From the IMG/VR virus record IMGVR_UViG_3300027749_000049, positions 62,001 to 126,000 of that record: a DNA stretch of 64,000 nucleotides. The stretch is one strand, 5' to 3'. Positions within the stretch are counted from its first letter, which is position 1. Each line of letters opens with the position of its first letter. Positions 15,514 through 61,305 of the stretch are shown here, one piece after another. Origin of the DNA: a virus. Both the position numbers and the translations under genes were made by a program. The notes under the pieces are model-generated. The model ran no database searches. It worked only from the letters and a program-made list of their open reading frames with translations, and had not been told where the DNA came from.

Positions 15514-15960
15514 ATGGTAAACCTAAAAAAATTATTAGTAATAATTGCAGCTTGGAATCAAGCAGATCAGGATGAATCTACTTTAGCTGAATTACAATCT
15601 TACTATGCGGACAAAAATATCCAAGCTCTATCCTTGGAAGATCTGACAAGCCGTACGTCTTTCTTGCCTAATAGCCTTGTGATGACATGCGAAGATGATC
15701 CAAGAGATTCATGTTTTTATACAGAAGATGGAATTCATCTTACTCCAATAGTGATGATAGATGCAAATAGTCAAGAAGAAATAGATCCCAAAGAAGTTCT
15801 AACCGAAGAAGAAGCAGAAGACGAAGGTTACGAATACTACGACTTTGAAACGTTTATGGACCATTTCGAAGGATACGAAAACATACTACTAAACTTTAAA
15901 ATTACTAGAGTCAACAGTATTAAAGAAGGAACTGTACTTCGATTTGACGAATTTATCTAA
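15514..15960 (+). CDS. Unknown strongly acidic protein
   Basis: 148 residues, about a quarter Asp/Glu (VLTEEEAEDEGYEYYDFETF). Such acidic phage proteins often mimic DNA or bind basic partners, but no family is recognised. Single-gene unit ended by a terminator. Confidence 0.65.
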   Translation: MVNLKKLLVIIAAWNQADQDESTLAELQSYYADKNIQALSLEDLTSRTSFLPNSLVMTCEDDPRDSCFYTEDGIHLTPIVMIDANSQEEIDPKEVLTEEEAEDEGYEYYDFETFMDHFEGYENILLNFKITRVNSIKEGTVLRFDEFI

Positions 15961-20415: not shown

Positions 20416-20566
20416 GGGGTTATTTATCTACTGCCCGGCCTGCCCGCTTGGACAGCCCCCGGCCCCGGGTCCAGCAGTGTCCATATACTTCTCGAGTCCG
20501 GGCCCCCTCTAGAGCCCGGGAGCCTGCTCGGGTCCGTGGAGGCCGCGGTCGCCGTACTCCCTAGTC

Positions 20567-20740
20567 CCCATGAATGCACAGCTTGTACCCTTTGGGCGGT
20601 GGCAAGCAGGGGTACTCCCTAGTCCCACGGGGCCGGGGTCAGGGCTGGGCTCGGCTGGCCTGGCAGGGGTACTCCCTAGTCCCGAGCCGGGCTGGCCTGG
20701 TTGGGTAGAGCCGGGCTGGCTGCAGGTACTCCCTAGTCCT
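20567..20740 (+). repeat. Array of four CTCCCTAGTCC(C/T) copies
   Basis: Copies start at 20567, 20625, 20672 and 20729 (spacings 58, 47 and 57), all on the + strand and each preceded by GTA (GGGGTA or similar). The first three are the exact 12-mer; the last ends in T. The spacings are close to multiples of one helical turn. Confidence 0.88.
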
Positions 20741-20848: not shown

Positions 20849-20986
20849 TTTCTTTTTATGTATATAAGTAGACAGAGTCTTGCCTGGAGAGTTTCTTCTT
20901 AGATTAGTATCTTTACTTAGAGTAGTAGGGCGCGCCTCTAAGCTTTGGGACGCAGGCATACCCACGGCCAGGACCCGGACCGATTG

Positions 20987-20996
20987 GGTATATTAG
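20987..20996 (+). promoter_or_regulatory. GGTATATTAG promoter for the tRNA-like cluster
   Basis: GGTATATTAG ends 7 bases before the first tRNA-like gene. Confidence 0.55.
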
Positions 20997-21003
20997 ACTC
21001 AAT

Positions 21004-21088
21004 AGTCAGGTGGCTGAAATGGTAACAGCACAACGAAACTCTTAGGGTTGTTGGTCAAAACTTATAGGTTCGATTCCTGTCCTGATTA
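21004..21088 (+). tRNA. tRNA-like gene A, expanded anticodon loop
   Basis: Acceptor AGTCAGG/CCTGATT, D-arm GCTG...CAGC, T-arm ATAGG-TTCGATT-CCTGT are all good, and length (85) fits a class II (Leu/Ser-type) tRNA. The anticodon stem that pairs well is ACAAC/GTTGT, which encloses a 12-base loop (GAAACTCTTAGG) rather than 7. No anticodon can be assigned with confidence. 3' end is ACA, no encoded CCA. Confidence 0.65.
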
Positions 21089-21091
21089 CAA

Positions 21092-21162
21092 ATAAATGAG
21101 TTCACAATTTGCCGATGCACTTCGCCATGCGGATTCACAATGGGCTAATGTACCTCATTTAT
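21092..21162 (+). ncRNA. Structured spacer RNA between tRNA-like genes
   Basis: A perfect 9-bp closing stem (ATAAATGAG/CTCATTTAT) encloses about 53 bases that contain TTCACAAT twice. No T-loop sequence is present, so it is not a tRNA. Confidence 0.5.
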
Positions 21163-21164
21163 AC

Positions 21165-21241
21165 AGTCAGGTAGCTAAATGGGTAAAGCGGTTCCTCTTC
21201 ACAAAGATGGAATGATGCAGGTTCGAGTCCTGTCCTGACTA
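21165..21241 (+). tRNA. tRNA-like gene B, anticodon arm is one long hairpin
   Basis: Acceptor AGTCAGG/CCTGACT, D-arm GCTAAATGGGTAAAGC and T-arm GCAGG-TTCGAGT-CCTGT are tRNA-like. The anticodon arm folds as GTTCC-TCTT-CACA-AAGA-T-GGAAT, a 9-bp hairpin with a 4-base loop, leaving no standard 7-base anticodon loop. Confidence 0.6.
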
Positions 21242-21252
21242 CACAGATTAAT

Positions 21253-21262
21253 GGTATAATAA
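21253..21262 (+). promoter_or_regulatory. GGTATAATAA promoter within the tRNA-like cluster
   Basis: Matches the GGTATAwTA element; suggests that genes C-E form a separate transcript. About 70 bases of untranslated leader with a GTGCAC palindrome follow. Confidence 0.5.
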
Positions 21263-21335
21263 CCCTATAAAAGTAGAAACAACGTCTCCCCAGTTTCTTG
21301 TTCCGTGCACGGAAAGGATTTATAAGGAGCAATTT

Positions 21336-21441
21336 AGTCAGGTGGCGGAATGGTAGACGCTAAGAAAGAGATAAACTTTGTACTTCACATGATGGTACAC
21401 TAAAGCATTATCTCGTATAGGTTCGAATCCTATCCTGACTA
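21336..21441 (+). tRNA. tRNA-like gene C with a long extended anticodon stem
   Basis: Acceptor AGTCAGG/CCTGACT, Leu-type D-arm (GGCGGAATGGTAGACGC) and T-arm ATAGG-TTCGAAT-CCTAT. Between D- and T-arms lies an extended hairpin: GAGATAA/TTATCTC, CTTT/AAAG and TGTAC/GTACA stacked under an 11-base loop (TTCACATGATG). Length is 106 bases against about 85 for class II tRNAs. Confidence 0.6.
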
Positions 21442-21443
21442 CA

Positions 21444-21523
21444 AATAGATGTATTGATCGTCTAGCGGTAAGACATATCGTAAGATAAGACGCAGGTTCA
21501 AATCCTGGGTATTTGCATCTATT
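21444..21523 (+). tRNA. tRNA-like element D with a tetraloop in place of the anticodon arm
   Basis: D-arm GTC-TAGCGGTAA-GAC and T-arm (GCAGG-TTCAAAT-CCTGG) are recognisable. Between them is TATC-GTAA-GATA, a 4-bp hairpin with a GNRA-type loop and no anticodon. The outer ends pair as AATAGATG/CATCTATT, but this stem is not directly next to the T-arm, so the acceptor is uncertain. Confidence 0.45.
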
Positions 21524-21527
21524 AAAT

Positions 21528-21611
21528 AGTCAGGCGGCGAGCATGGTGGCACCTACCCAAGTGGCTTGAGCTCGTTAATGGTCCATACCCGTTCGAATCG
21601 GGTCCTGACTA
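21528..21611 (+). tRNA. tRNA-like gene E
   Basis: Acceptor AGTCAGG/CCTGACT and T-arm ACCCG-TTCGAAT-CGGGT are perfect. The D- and anticodon arms do not fold in the usual way; one reading has a loop CTACCCAA, another places CAAG-TGG-CTTG as a mini-hairpin. No anticodon assigned. Confidence 0.55.
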
Positions 21612-22264: not shown

Positions 22265-22298
22265 TAAAAGGACCCTTAGCAATATCGGTCTTTTTTTT
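22265..22298 (+). terminator. Rho-independent terminator
   Basis: AAAAGGACC and GGTCTTTT with T-run that runs into a GGTATATTAA element. Confidence 0.75.
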
Positions 22299-22299
22299 G

Positions 22300-22309
22300 G
22301 GTATATTAA
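22300..22309 (+). promoter_or_regulatory. GGTATATTAA promoter fused to terminator
   Basis: The element begins directly after the terminator T-run. Confidence 0.55.
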
Positions 22310-23139: not shown

Positions 23140-24033
23140 ATGAAAAAGATAATTAAAGGATTTACTCAATTTGTAAACGAAAACTTCTATTATGGGGAAA
23201 AAGATAGTGATGCTACTTTATTTGATAGCTATGAAGAAGCTGATAAAATTACAGCGGCTGCATTAGGTTGTAGTCTAGAAGAACTAGACAACTATTTTAT
23301 TGGTTCACCAGTTACAAGAGAAGGCGAACCTAATATGATGGATGATTTTGCTCCAGTGATAGACTTGTTTAATACTGAAATAGATCCTGAAGAACCTCAA
23401 TGGTCAGTTCGTAATACACGTAACAGCGACTGGCGTTTAAAGAAACACGGTCAAATTATTTGGACAGTAAATCAGGCTGGTCCAGGTGGTTATGCTCAAG
23501 CTCATCTATTTAACCATAACGGAATGACAGTTGTAGTAATTGATGGAGATGATGGTCCGTTTGTCTATATTAAACCAAGTGTAAACGAAGGAGATAATCC
23601 AGCACATAATTTCTTGAGAAAAACACATAAACACAAGACTGGTGAAGAGCCTAACCCTAAATATAATGGGGAAGAACTAGAACGTGAGTTTGGTGCTATG
23701 AGCGATACTGATAAAGATCGTTTTGAAAAAGTTGCAGATCGTACTAGAAATTTCCGTAAAGCTGATGTTAGCCGTGCAAAAGAGTCAGTAATTGCCGCAT
23801 TCTACCGTAACAATCCAAACCGACTATTATTGATATTAGACGACGCATACTTTACTCGTGGAAGCGAGGTCGCAACTGATATTGTTGACAAGTTTGTGAA
23901 TGACCCGAGTATGACACTAACTCAACTAGCACAAGAGGTTTCATCTAGTGATACTCATCGCGAGACTAGTCCAGAATCGGTGATTCGCCTATTGACTATG
24001 TACGCTAACAATCCTAGGATTGGAATATCTTAA
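23140..24033 (+). CDS. Protein with capsid-targeting-like N-terminus
   Basis: 297 residues. Signal MKKIIKGFTQFVNENFYYG. The middle (QIIWTVNQAGPGGYAQAHLF, MTVVVIDGDDGPFVYIKPS) is beta-rich; the C-terminal part is helical (NNPNRLLLILDDAYFTRGSE). No family recognised. Followed by a terminator. Confidence 0.78.
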   Translation: MKKIIKGFTQFVNENFYYGEKDSDATLFDSYEEADKITAAALGCSLEELDNYFIGSPVTREGEPNMMDDFAPVIDLFNTEIDPEEPQWSVRNTRNSDWRLKKHGQIIWTVNQAGPGGYAQAHLFNHNGMTVVVIDGDDGPFVYIKPSVNEGDNPAHNFLRKTHKHKTGEEPNPKYNGEELEREFGAMSDTDKDRFEKVADRTRNFRKADVSRAKESVIAAFYRNNPNRLLLILDDAYFTRGSEVATDIVDKFVNDPSMTLTQLAQEVSSSDTHRETSPESVIRLLTMYANNPRIGIS

Positions 24034-24053
24034 ACACTAGTTTAAAATTTCTT

Positions 24054-24087
24054 AAAAAAGGACCCATAGCAATATTGGTCCTTTTTT
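24054..24087 (+). terminator. Rho-independent terminator
   Basis: AAAAAAGGACC and GGTCCTTTTTT; almost the same sequence as the 22265 terminator. Confidence 0.88.
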
Positions 24088-24089
24088 GG

Positions 24090-24584: not shown

Positions 24585-26693
24585 ATGAAATTCCTTAAAC
24601 CTTTTAATCAATTAGACGAAATTCGGAAGTCCGACTTAAATCCAAACCTGAAAAGGCTAATTGATTTAGGTATTGCGGAGGAAGAGTTGGATTGGAAGGT
24701 AGACTACGATGAGGATACTAAGAGCATGGAAAGCAGTGATAAGCAAAGAATATTAAAGTATAGATCCCCAACCGGCGCTCACATTACTAAAATTGAGGGT
24801 AATATTGAAGCATTTCAAACCCAATTAGACATTTACTTTAGCAATGAAGATAAAATTCAAATGCATACTAAATTCTCACAACACCCTGGAGACAAGGGTC
24901 GAGCCACTTTTCAAGTTAAGCATAATAGTAAATGGCACTCAGTATTTAACCCAATAGTTAGTTCTGATAAAGCTGAACAATGGTTAGAGAAAGTAGAAGA
25001 CTCAGGCTCAAGCGTTCAGCCAATATTCTATTATTACGAAGAGTTTTTAAAAGCCTTACCTAATTACCAAAGTTATTGGACAATGGAAAATGAAGGTTTA
25101 GATTTAGACGAAATTCGGCAGTCTGCCTTAAATCCAAACCTGAAAAGACTAATTGATTTGGGTATTGCAAAGGAAGAGTTAGATTGGGACGTTAAGTATG
25201 ACGAGGACATGCGTGCTTATGAAAATACTGATAGACAAGCTACGTATGATTATGAATCCCCAACCGGTGATCAGGTTATTAGTGTTGAAGGCACAGTCAC
25301 CAAATTTGAAACTAAATTAAGCTTTAAGCTCAGTGATTCAACAATATATGCACATGTTAACTTCCCAAAATCAGCTAAGAGTAAAAGTCGAGTCATTTTA
25401 ACTATGGCGTATTCTGACAGCCAATCCAATCTACCTGTTTGGTTAACCGTATTTGGAGGTGGGCTCCGATCTAGCGAGCCTACTGGCAATGCCAAAGAAT
25501 GGTTAGGCTTAGTTAAGCAACACAATTCAGCGGTATGGCCTATCTTCTATTATTGCAATGAGTTTTTAAAAACCTTAAATGAAGGTTTAAATATTACAAC
25601 CAATGAAATGATGAAGCCTGACTATACTCGACTACAGTTATTCATTAGAGCTTTACGTGATTTACCAATTGACTCAAATATAATACTTAAAATACGCCAA
25701 CTAATTAATAATCTGATAATTGATCCTTATCATAATAGGATTTCTATTTTAGCTGAAGTAGACTACGGCTTTTCAGATATTCCAGGTATCAGTGAATTGG
25801 TTGCAAAGTTTAGTAGACCGCTCACTGAAGCCCTTGAGATACAACCTCATCAAGACGCTGAGATAACCCAAATGGGCATAACTCTTGCAAATTTTAAAAG
25901 GCTAGTTGAAATTGGAGTTATTGAGGATGAGGTATATCGTCGTCAATTTAAGAACCTGGCGGTTTCATTTAATAAATTAATTAAAGGTTTACAACTTAAC
26001 GTGAGAGACCAAACTGATCTTGACCTATTAATGTCGCTTAGACAAAAGGCTGGTCAAGATTCATTGCTTGGATTGGAAACTGCTGGCACTAAGGCTCTAT
26101 TAGCAAAAGGTTTACATCTGGTTTCAAGTCCAACTCAATTGACCAATGGCTCTTTAATATTTTCGCTTGACTCAGATTATAAACGTCGTAATGGATGGGG
26201 TATTGGGTTCTTTCCTGGTCCAAAGGTTATTAGGCGTATGACCCCAAAGCAAATCAATATTGGAGTTTGGTCAAGAAGCTATGGGTCAATGGATATTGGA
26301 ATAAAACATTTTAAGGATACCCCTACTGATGTTGACTTCTATAATAAGGCAATGTTATGGGCTGCTGATAACATTGATTTTGAACATGCAGCTTTGTATC
26401 CCGAAGAGAACCAATGGAAATATTATAAAAAGAAAAAGGACTCACCAGCTAAACGGTCTGAATCAGACGAATTACGTGTACAAGCAACCGCAATGGATTC
26501 AAGGACTAGGATCAAACCATATCAAACATGGGAAGGCCGGCTTGAAGCACTTAACGTTCATCTTGAAGCCTCGAAATTAAGACTTAAAGCCTCTCAACTT
26601 GACAATGATGAAGCTGCAGTAATCAGTGCAAAAGAGCAAATTGCCCATATTGAACTTGATATAGCTAACTTACAAAACAAATTAACCAATTAA
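24585..26693 (+). CDS. Large capsid-targeted-like protein with internal duplication
   Basis: 702 residues. MKFLKPFNQLDEIRKS starts a unit ending NLKRLIDLGIAEEELDW (about 21-37); the unit recurs at about residues 170-200 with DEIRQSALNPNLKRLIDLGI, and a third copy (FKRLVEIGVIED) lies near residue 440. Each of the first two is followed by a similar beta-rich domain (SPTGAHITKIEGNIEAF and SPTGDQVISVEGTVTKF). The C-terminus is a coiled coil (LRLKASQLDNDEAAVISAKE). Function unknown; the repeats suggest a multi-unit structural or internal protein. Confidence 0.8.
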   Translation: MKFLKPFNQLDEIRKSDLNPNLKRLIDLGIAEEELDWKVDYDEDTKSMESSDKQRILKYRSPTGAHITKIEGNIEAFQTQLDIYFSNEDKIQMHTKFSQHPGDKGRATFQVKHNSKWHSVFNPIVSSDKAEQWLEKVEDSGSSVQPIFYYYEEFLKALPNYQSYWTMENEGLDLDEIRQSALNPNLKRLIDLGIAKEELDWDVKYDEDMRAYENTDRQATYDYESPTGDQVISVEGTVTKFETKLSFKLSDSTIYAHVNFPKSAKSKSRVILTMAYSDSQSNLPVWLTVFGGGLRSSEPTGNAKEWLGLVKQHNSAVWPIFYYCNEFLKTLNEGLNITTNEMMKPDYTRLQLFIRALRDLPIDSNIILKIRQLINNLIIDPYHNRISILAEVDYGFSDIPGISELVAKFSRPLTEALEIQPHQDAEITQMGITLANFKRLVEIGVIEDEVYRRQFKNLAVSFNKLIKGLQLNVRDQTDLDLLMSLRQKAGQDSLLGLETAGTKALLAKGLHLVSSPTQLTNGSLIFSLDSDYKRRNGWGIGFFPGPKVIRRMTPKQINIGVWSRSYGSMDIGIKHFKDTPTDVDFYNKAMLWAADNIDFEHAALYPEENQWKYYKKKKDSPAKRSESDELRVQATAMDSRTRIKPYQTWEGRLEALNVHLEASKLRLKASQLDNDEAAVISAKEQIAHIELDIANLQNKLTN

Positions 26694-29831: not shown

Positions 29832-29858
29832 AAAGGCTGGTAACTCCAGCCTTTTTTT
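29832..29858 (+). terminator. Rho-independent terminator
   Basis: AAAGGCTGG and CCAGCCTTT around TAACT, then T-run. Confidence 0.9.
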
Positions 29859-29889: not shown

Positions 29890-30108
29890 ATGGAAGCAGA
29901 AACTAAACTTACTAAAACTCAAATTGCAATTAGTCAAGCCCGTTTAATAATGGAAAGTTTTGATGCAAGTGGAGCGCTGACCATTGGTTATGACCAGCCT
30001 ACTTATGTCTTAACCTCTGATCAGATGTCAACCATTGCTGGAGCTCTGTATTTAGCAGATTGCGAAATTCAAGACATATTAGACAGACTATCAGTATTAG
30101 AGGATTAA
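29890..30108 (+). CDS. Unknown small protein
   Basis: 72 residues, helical with an acidic end (ADCEIQDILDRLSVLED). No family recognised. Placed 9 bp before smpB and probably cotranscribed. Confidence 0.6.
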   Translation: MEAETKLTKTQIAISQARLIMESFDASGALTIGYDQPTYVLTSDQMSTIAGALYLADCEIQDILDRLSVLED

Positions 30109-30117
30109 TAAACAGAT

Positions 30118-30540
30118 ATGATTGCTGAAAACCGAAAGGCCAAATACGAATATGAATTTATTGAGAGGTGGACTGCTGGTATTTCGCTAGTCGGGTCAGA
30201 GGTCAAGTCGATTAAAGCCGGACATATTGATTTTACTGGATCTTGGTGCGAATTACGAAATGGAGAATGCTGGATTAGGGAACTGTATATTAAAGAATCA
30301 GCTACGGCTTTTAGCCACCAGGATAAACGAGAGAGGCGCTTACTCTTAACTAAAAAGGAACTAAAGAAGCTTGATAAGCTGATGGACAAGGGCCTCACGA
30401 TCGTTCCAGTATCAATTCAGGTTAATCCAAAAGGTTTAATTAAAGTATCTATTGCCCTAGCCAAAGGTAAAAAACTTTGGGACAAGCGCCAAGTTATAAA
30501 AAATAGAGATGCTGACCGAGCTTTATTAGTTTCAGGTTAA
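30118..30540 (+). CDS. smpB: SsrA-binding protein SmpB
   Basis: 140 residues over the full SmpB fold: ENRKAKYEYEFIERWTAGIS (oligonucleotide-binding barrel start), LVGSEVKSIKAGHIDF, the conserved R-x-LLLTKKELKKL segment, KGLTIVPVSI, and the C-terminal AKGKKLWDKRQVIK tail that enters the ribosomal mRNA channel in host SmpB. SmpB binds the tRNA-like part of tmRNA and takes the place of the anticodon arm in trans-translation. A phage-borne copy is unusual. No tmRNA gene was found in this window. Somewhat shorter than host SmpB (about 150-160). Confidence 0.92.
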   Translation: MIAENRKAKYEYEFIERWTAGISLVGSEVKSIKAGHIDFTGSWCELRNGECWIRELYIKESATAFSHQDKRERRLLLTKKELKKLDKLMDKGLTIVPVSIQVNPKGLIKVSIALAKGKKLWDKRQVIKNRDADRALLVSG

Positions 30541-61199: not shown

Positions 61200-61305
61200 A
61201 GCCAGATGGGCGTAATGCGGGATGGTACCCAAGTCCCCAACTCGAAAGAGGTAAGGTTGTCTAATCCGTCTAGTACGGTATCCGGTTCGAGTCCGGCTCT
61301 GGCTT
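61200..61305 (+). tRNA. tRNA-like gene F with expanded D and anticodon regions
   Basis: Acceptor AGCCAGA/TCTGGCT and T-loop TTCGAGT are clear; a class II variable arm CCGT-CTAGT-ACGG is present. The D-arm seems to hold an extra CGTAATGCG and the anticodon arm an extra CTC-GAAA-GAG mini-hairpin within CAAC...GTTG. No anticodon could be assigned. Discriminator T is unusual. Confidence 0.6.

What the first reader, a model, noticed from the sequence alone, without database searches (positions are those of the whole stretch)
30118..30540. Phage-encoded SmpB
Complete SmpB including the C-terminal tail. Established: SmpB binds tmRNA and rescues stalled ribosomes. No tmRNA is visible here; the phage may use host tmRNA, encode one elsewhere, or pair SmpB with its own anticodon-less tRNA-like RNAs. 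SmpB normally replaces the missing anticodon arm of tmRNA, which makes the coexistence with tRNA-like RNAs lacking anticodon loops suggestive.
Basis: partly seen in the sequence, partly recalled or inferred. Interest (0 to 1): 0.8.

Follow-up and report, generated by a model that had tools for sequence, protein, structure and literature searches.

The report
Phage-encoded ribosome-rescue pair, SmpB plus tmRNA
This large phage, probably infecting Bacteroidota, carries its own copy of both halves of the bacterial stalled-ribosome rescue kit (the protein SmpB here, and a tmRNA elsewhere in its genome), so the SmpB most likely works with that tmRNA and not with the odd tRNA-like RNAs nearby, which look like a separate and possibly new family of phage RNAs.

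Summary
The SmpB at 30118-30540 is real: full-length, 151 bits over the Pfam model, tail motif kept, under strong purifying selection, folding like solved SmpBs. Related 254-271 kb phage contigs keep the pair and a near-identical tag; in another SmpB lineage the two genes lie about 1 kb apart. Best explanation: a phage-owned trans-translation pair acquired long ago from Bacteroidota. Huge phages with tmRNAs and SmpB are already in print, so this is a new member of a known kind; the 24-aa tag (Bacteroidota tags: 8-9 aa) is its unusual feature. The idea that SmpB pairs with the anticodon-less tRNA-like RNAs is not supported: those RNAs occur mostly without SmpB, have U3-A70 in all 165 tested, and encode no tag. 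The tRNA-likes themselves are real and striking: an almost exclusively viral class with a fixed tRNA scaffold and exchanged, hypervariable inserts.

The parts
30118..30540 (+). smpB gene, 140 aa
   Evidence: PF01668 151 bits; solved SmpB structures E 1.4e-33; AlphaFold model and Foldseek; dN/dS 0.05-0.15
29890..30108 (+). 72-aa ORF directly upstream of smpB (9 nt gap); no Pfam or PHROGs match; probably co-transcribed (inference)
29832..29854 (+). terminator-like hairpin with T tail after the preceding gene, likely upstream boundary of a small smpB operon
   Evidence: 4 such sites found in the 4 kb, 2.6 expected from shuffles, so weak on its own
21004..21088 (+). tRNA-like element A, acceptor AGTCAGG/CCTGATT, no canonical anticodon arm (not part of the rescue pair)
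   Evidence: Rfam tRNA 37 bits; fold
21165..21241 (+). tRNA-like element B; ARAGORN calls tRNA-SeC(tca); the would-be anticodon loop folds into a longer hairpin
21336..21441 (+). tRNA-like element C, 106 nt, with a structured insert of about 55 nt
   Evidence: Rfam tRNA 38 bits; fold z -2.97
21446..21516 (+). tRNA-like element D, different acceptor, weak; not a member of the shared-acceptor class
21528..21611 (+). tRNA-like element E, acceptor AGTCAGG/CCTGACT; homology with sister phages L007 and L008 resumes at its T arm
20986..20997 (+). promoter-like GGGTATATTAGA ending 6 nt before element A; a near-identical motif precedes the first element in L238
   Evidence: seen by eye and counted; no expression data

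Best explanation
The gene is a working SmpB of a large phage, most likely infecting a member of the Bacteroidota. It partners the phage's own one-piece tmRNA, encoded 76 kb away in the same record. SHOWN by sequence: intact SmpB fold and tail motif; strong purifying selection; a tmRNA over the Rfam cut-off with the G3-U70 alanine identity pair, a T arm and an open tag frame ending in Leu-Leu-Ala-Ala-stop; the pair kept in related phages; SmpB descended from the Bacteroidota branch. INFERRED: the tmRNA is charged with alanine, SmpB stands in for its missing anticodon arm and carries it into ribosomes stalled on truncated mRNA, the ribosome switches to the tag frame, and the product is tagged for host proteases while the ribosome returns to phage translation. 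INFERRED, weaker: the phage needs its own set because infection makes many truncated messages (degraded host mRNA, cleaved phage mRNA) or because host trans-translation is limiting, and its three-fold longer tag changes how tagged proteins are handled.
For: SmpB. tmRNA in the same record: 111 bits, full model 1-374, ARAGORN tag. Same pair in relatives: 5 of the 7 contigs of at least 75 kb in the SmpB scan have a tmRNA over the cut-off (four of the five are near-identical 270-271 kb records and the fifth has the identical tmRNA, so about one independent case), plus a 254 kb phage-like contig binned in a Bacteroidetes MAG with SmpB, tmRNA and tRNA-likes. Tags of the three lineages: GNTTFWSLVNQGVNTPVTEELLAA, GNTNFWSLVNESVNAPVTEELLAA, GNTTFWSLVNETVNTPVTEELLAA. 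In a separate SmpB lineage tmRNA and smpB are 0.86-1.06 kb apart in 3 contigs (G054, G057, G063). All 4 SmpB-positive contigs of the tRNA-like set also have a tmRNA. Tree: 36 of 38 phage-collection SmpBs and all 7 Bacteroidota SmpBs fall in one supported group (99/93), the window in a phage-only group of 6 (100/100).
Against: No expression, binding or rescue data. SmpB and tmRNA are 76 kb apart here. SmpB also occurs in large phage records without a detected tmRNA: 2 of 7 contigs of at least 75 kb from the SmpB scan (G013, G014) and 3 of 6 huge phages (the other 3 score only 48-65 bits and ARAGORN finds no tmRNA in them), so the pairing is not obligatory. Five contigs have a tmRNA but no SmpB. 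The tag frame itself drifts: 4 of 5 codon differences between two relatives are non-synonymous. The AlphaFold tail has pLDDT only 51-58. In three of the four SmpB-positive contigs ARAGORN does not call the tmRNA.
Confidence: 0.85

Rival explanations
1. The phage SmpB works mainly with the host tmRNA (boosting host rescue during infection), and the phage tmRNA is used with host SmpB or is a spare.
For: Some large phages carry SmpB without a detected tmRNA and some the reverse. Bacteroidota genomes carry their own tmRNA, several with a G-starting tag, and the phage SmpB is of Bacteroidota descent, so cross-pairing is plausible.
Against: Wherever SmpB was found in the tRNA-like contig set a tmRNA was there too, 4 of 4; the pair is kept in three related lineages and is adjacent in another.
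Confidence: 0.25
2. One reading: SmpB binds the anticodon-less tRNA-like RNAs, filling the place of the missing anticodon arm, or those RNAs titrate SmpB, as is suggested for the TLD-only tmRNA type of mycobacteriophage DS6A.
For: Same genome, 8.5-9 kb apart; the topology (tRNA ends with an insert in place of the anticodon arm) resembles tmRNA; a TLD-only tmRNA exists in phage DS6A and a similar molecule inhibits tmRNA whether or not it can be charged with alanine (PMC4131195, passages).
Against: SmpB in only 4 of 16 large contigs with the RNAs, and 35 of 47 SmpB records lack their signature. U3-A70 in 165 of 165, no Ala-Ala-stop tag end in 165 (1.2 expected by shuffling). They keep an ordinary D arm and score as tRNA, and the tmRNA model gives no match at the array.
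Confidence: 0.07
3. SmpB is a recently captured host gene or a contaminating bacterial fragment with no role in the phage.
For: Two of the 38 phage-collection SmpBs in the tree do look like that: MT835488 groups with Lachnospiraceae and Pseudomonas phage Y6 with a gammaproteobacterium.
Against: The window's SmpB lies in a phage-only clade of 6 with a long stem (0.92 changes per column), its surroundings are homologous in relatives, and it is under purifying selection.
Confidence: 0.03

Closest known systems
SmpB and tmRNA of huge phages (Al-Shayeb et al. 2020, PMC7162821; passages read)
   Same: Huge phages reported there carry tmRNAs and SmpB among their translation genes.
   Different: The passages do not say which genomes hold both, nor give tags or neighbouring genes. 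Here both are shown in one record, with the tag and its conservation. All 66 phage records matched by this SmpB in the phage collection are under 60% identical to it.
Bacterial trans-translation (SmpB with one-piece tmRNA) of Bacteroidota
   Same: SmpB groups with Bacteroidota; tmRNA is one-piece with a tag starting G and ending in a hydrophobic residue-Ala-Ala.
   Different: Tag of 24 aa against 8-9 aa in the six Bacteroidota host tmRNAs for which ARAGORN gave a tag.
Phage tmRNA (mycobacteriophages Bxz1, Wildcat etc., Bacillus phage G: PMC4131195, passages; OM43 phage Melnitz: PMC9004378, passages)
   Same: Phage-encoded tmRNA.
   Different: Melnitz's is two-piece; no phage smpB is mentioned in the passages read.
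TLD-only tmRNA of mycobacteriophage DS6A (PMC4131195, PMC11915505; passages)
   Different: DS6A's is a tmRNA relative of about 65 nt; the elements here have U3-A70, an ordinary D arm and inserts of very varied length.
Pseudo-tRNA tRNA-Other of Bacillus cereus (PMC3399842, abstract)
   Same: A tRNA-like RNA that does not work in translation and may be a structural element of a regulatory RNA.
   Different: One chromosomal gene; here a large, variable, almost exclusively viral class.

Membership tests
SmpB (PF01668) | Profile match over most of the length | tested here: met
   151 bits, positions 1-136 of 143, cut-off 27
SmpB (PF01668) | SmpB fold | tested here: met
   AlphaFold mean pLDDT 81; 21 Foldseek hits at E <= 0.001, all SmpB
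SmpB (PF01668) | C-terminal tail with GKKxxDKR and a helix-forming end | tested here: met
   Motif present; within it K116-K119, W121, D122, K123 invariant and R124 nearly so in 14 phage SmpBs; helix 119-139 predicted, pLDDT 51-58. That DKR matters for tagging is recalled, from no call
SmpB (PF01668) | Binds tmRNA and supports ribosome rescue | not testable with these tools
   Needs a binding and a tagging assay
tmRNA (RF00023), partner in the same record | Covariance-model match over the cut-off | tested here: met
   111 bits, cut-off 47, positions 1-374
tmRNA (RF00023), partner in the same record | Alanine identity pair G3-U70 and A73 | tested here: met
   Acceptor GGGGATA/TATCTCC-A read from L002; that this pair is the alanine signal is general knowledge, from no call
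tmRNA (RF00023), partner in the same record | Open tag frame ending in a hydrophobic residue-Ala-Ala-stop | tested here: met
   ARAGORN: GNTTFWSLVNQGVNTPVTEELLAA*; open in two related lineages
Array elements as tmRNA or TLD | G3-U70 acceptor pair | tested here: not met
   U3-A70 in 165 of 165 elements, which were chosen by an AGTCAGG 5' end and a CCTGA(C/T)T 3' end
Array elements as tmRNA or TLD | Tag frame ending Ala-Ala-stop | tested here: not met
   0 of 165, 1.2 expected from shuffles
Array elements as ordinary tRNA | Acceptor, D and T arms | tested here: met
   MFE fold holds the acceptor in 164 and the T arm in 139 of 165; three window elements over Rfam's tRNA cut-off
Array elements as ordinary tRNA | Canonical anticodon arm (5 bp, 7-nt loop) | tested here: not met
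   No such arm in the MFE folds of the window elements; ARAGORN calls only 44 of 165, 11 of them without an assignable anticodon

The most novel reading that the evidence does not exclude
The phage's SmpB has a second job: it, or the A-site route it opens, also handles a new class of viral RNAs, tRNA-scaffold cassettes whose anticodon arm is replaced by an exchangeable hypervariable insert. Those RNAs would then be a swappable set of SmpB- or ribosome-directed effectors or decoys. (The part without SmpB, that these cassettes are a distinct and functional class of phage RNA, I put at about 0.7.)
Probability: 0.07. Interest if true: 0.9.

Novelty: new member of a known kind. Interest (0 to 1): 0.5.

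Why it matters
That makes a testable case of a virus that owns its ribosome-rescue step. It also separates this from the tRNA-like array, which deserves study as a different object: a nearly virus-only RNA class with a constant tRNA frame and exchanged inserts.

Tried and rejected
SmpB with tRNA-like RNAs as a tmRNA substitute: rejected on co-occurrence, acceptor identity and absence of a tag frame. Array elements as mini-tmRNAs: rejected (the tmRNA model gave no match at the array even at E <= 10, within that tool's first-look limits). Array elements as mimics of a host tRNA with the same acceptor: the 3' signature matched only 25 stretches in the genome-contig collection (84,980 species genomes); 11 of the 25 carry the scaffold, all in MAG contigs, a twelfth (L251) lies on the same contig as one of them, and the rest lack the acceptor. 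Array elements as ordinary tRNAs missed by software: ARAGORN on 165 isolated elements called 44, with scattered anticodons. General secondary structure in the inserts: only weakly better than shuffles (mean z -0.61, 14 of 162 below -2). Literature searches for such an RNA class gave no paper whose listing describes it; the library holds open-licence PMC papers only. Rows dropped: 7 redundant SmpB rows before the tree (65 distinct to 58). Of the 80 tabulated stretches of the 3'-signature scan, 39 lie in records of at least 40 kb; 38 were tested for SmpB (the 39th, L092, is the same record as L007). 40 further stretches fetched by that scan were not tested for SmpB.

Full report
WHAT IS THERE. 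ORF 30118-30540 (+, 140 aa) is SmpB: PF01668 at 151 bits against a cut-off of 27, PHROG 6791 (unnamed), and 15 distinct PDB sequences, all SmpB, best E 1.4e-33. An AlphaFold model from 14 phage SmpBs (mean pLDDT 81) matches 21 PDB chains at E <= 0.001, all SmpB or tmRNA-SmpB complexes. The tail is complete: GKKLWDKR and a terminal helix. K116 G117 K118 K119 W121 D122 K123 are invariant in the 14 aligned. dN/dS against four relatives is 0.05 to 0.15. The gene follows a 72-aa ORF by 9 nt, behind a terminator-like hairpin at 29832-29854.

THE MISSING tmRNA. The window is positions 62001-126000 of a 128,004-base virus record. In that record, outside the window at 15593-15959 on the minus strand, lies a tmRNA: Rfam RF00023, 111 bits, model 1-374, cut-off 47; ARAGORN agrees and reads the tag GNTTFWSLVNQGVNTPVTEELLAA. 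The acceptor GGGGATA/TATCTCC with A73 has the G3-U70 pair that general knowledge names as the alanine signal.

IS THE PAIR KEPT? Scanning IMG/VR with this SmpB gave 40 loci. A tmRNA over the cut-off was found in 5 of those 40 records. Most of the 40 are fragments; of the 7 that are at least 75 kb, 5 have it. Four of these five are near-identical 270-271 kb records and the fifth, 90.6 kb, has the identical tmRNA, so they count as one lineage. Their tag is GNTNFWSLVNESVNAPVTEELLAA; the two tmRNAs are 91% identical, and 4 of 5 codon differences in the tag are non-synonymous while the frame stays open. A 254 kb contig binned in a Bacteroidetes MAG, phage-like by its homology with the window, has a third version: SmpB (150.9 bits), tmRNA (81.5 bits) and tag GNTTFWSLVNETVNTPVTEELLAA, besides the bin's own SmpB and tmRNA. 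The distance between the two genes is about 75-78 kb in all three lineages. In a more distant SmpB lineage (G054, G057, G063) they are 0.86-1.06 kb apart. Against an obligatory pairing: two large SmpB contigs (165 and 152 kb) have no tmRNA over the cut-off; of six huge phages with SmpB (541-735 kb), three are over the cut-off, at 48-65 bits only, and three not, and ARAGORN finds no tmRNA in the three that are.

ORIGIN. In a tree of 58 SmpBs (7 redundant rows dropped), 36 of 38 phage-collection rows and all 7 Bacteroidota rows share a supported group (99/93); the window sits in a phage-only group of six (100/100) on a long branch. The two outliers, MT835488 and Pseudomonas phage Y6, group with other bacteria and may be host DNA. 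The host is therefore probably a Bacteroidota, in line with the MAG bin; this is inference.

THE TAG. Seven Bacteroidota genomes gave a tmRNA locus (an eighth, G095, gave none). For 6 of the 7 ARAGORN reads a host tag, of 8-9 aa: GENTYAMAA, GNTQYAMAA, GENNYALAA, GDYSYAMAA, EANYAMAA, ENNYALAA (L290 gave none). The phage tags in this lineage have 24 aa. Of nine phage tmRNA loci, ARAGORN reads five tags of 17-29 aa and one of 8, and calls no tmRNA in three. The tags are ARAGORN's readings, not proven. If right, the degradation-signal end is kept and the middle is lengthened.

THE tRNA-LIKE RNAs. Over the loci held, 190 distinct 3' ends had at least 175 nt upstream; 165 of these have AGTCAGG upstream (shuffled 7-mers: mean 1.6, highest 54). 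Of the 165, 139 have T at -1, and C74 is nearly constant. Between this fixed frame the inserts are hypervariable: element length 61-191 nt and 187 elements in 161 insert clusters, 143 of them singletons. At one locus the turnover can be watched: homology between the window and sister phages L007 and L008 resumes at the T arm of element E, while the insert before it is different, although another 4 kb of L007 is 95% identical to the window. In one trio (L080, L124, L128) a stem in the insert changes on both sides while its loop stays (read by eye).

NO LINK WITH SmpB. Of 38 contigs of at least 40 kb with the signature, 4 have SmpB; of the 16 of at least 75 kb, 4 have SmpB and 9 a tmRNA, and all 4 SmpB-positive ones are among the 9. 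The signature occurs in 12 of 47 SmpB records and in none of the six huge phages. All 165 elements have U3-A70; none has an Ala-Ala-stop (1.2 expected). So these RNAs are neither alanine acceptors of the tmRNA type nor tag carriers. A titration role like that suggested for the TLD-only tmRNA type of phage DS6A (PMC4131195, passages) is not excluded, since that inhibition is said not to need charging.

WHAT IS KNOWN. Al-Shayeb et al. 2020 state that huge phages encode tmRNAs and SmpB (PMC7162821, passages). Phage tmRNAs are known from mycobacteriophages, Bacillus phage G and Melnitz (PMC4131195 and PMC9004378, passages). Hence "new member of a known kind". Searches for the tRNA-like class listed no paper that describes it.

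VERDICT. Observation confirmed. Most likely mechanism: phage-owned trans-translation with the phage's tmRNA (0.85). Interest 0.5, raised above a routine gene by the conserved pair with a lengthened tag and by the tRNA-like class next to it.

Noticed in passing
window 21004-21611; also L007 25-427, L009 1032-1322 and 5170-5271, L238 3307-4731, and further IMG/VR stretches: A class of phage tRNA-like RNAs with constant ends (TAGTCAGG ... CCTGACTAC), a D arm like that of Leu-tRNA (recalled) and a constant T arm, with hypervariable exchanged inserts in place of the anticodon arm. The scaffold was found in only 11 of 25 signature hits in the 84,980-genome collection, all MAG contigs. Deserves a study of its own.
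   Followed up: partly
L254, L255, L256, L258, L259 (phage tmRNAs): ARAGORN reads tags of 17-29 aa in five further phage tmRNAs, against 8-9 aa in Bacteroidota hosts.
   Followed up: partly
window 61200-61305: Another tRNA-like element of 106 nt with a different acceptor (AGCCAGA/TCTGGCT) and no ARAGORN call.
   Followed up: no
ORFs at 24585, 26711, 28419, 30569 and 34012: Several neighbouring proteins begin with a short motif of the type MKxxKxFxxFxxE, resembling (recalled, not tested) the capsid-targeting leader of T4 internal proteins; SmpB lacks it (read by eye).
   Followed up: no
window 22265-22300 and 24050-24088; L238 4270-4305: Repeated terminator-like hairpin (GGACC..TAGCAATAT.GG(T/C)C followed by a T run); the sub-threshold Rfam sroB hit at 24003-24088 includes one such copy.
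   Followed up: no
window 20550-20740: Four copies of a GTACTCCCTAGTCC repeat in a GC-rich stretch just upstream of the tRNA-like array (read by eye).
   Followed up: no
L185, L085, L153, L096, L144: Some tRNA-like elements contain a second T-arm-like hairpin or an insertion inside the D loop, as if tRNA pieces were nested (read by eye).
   Followed up: no
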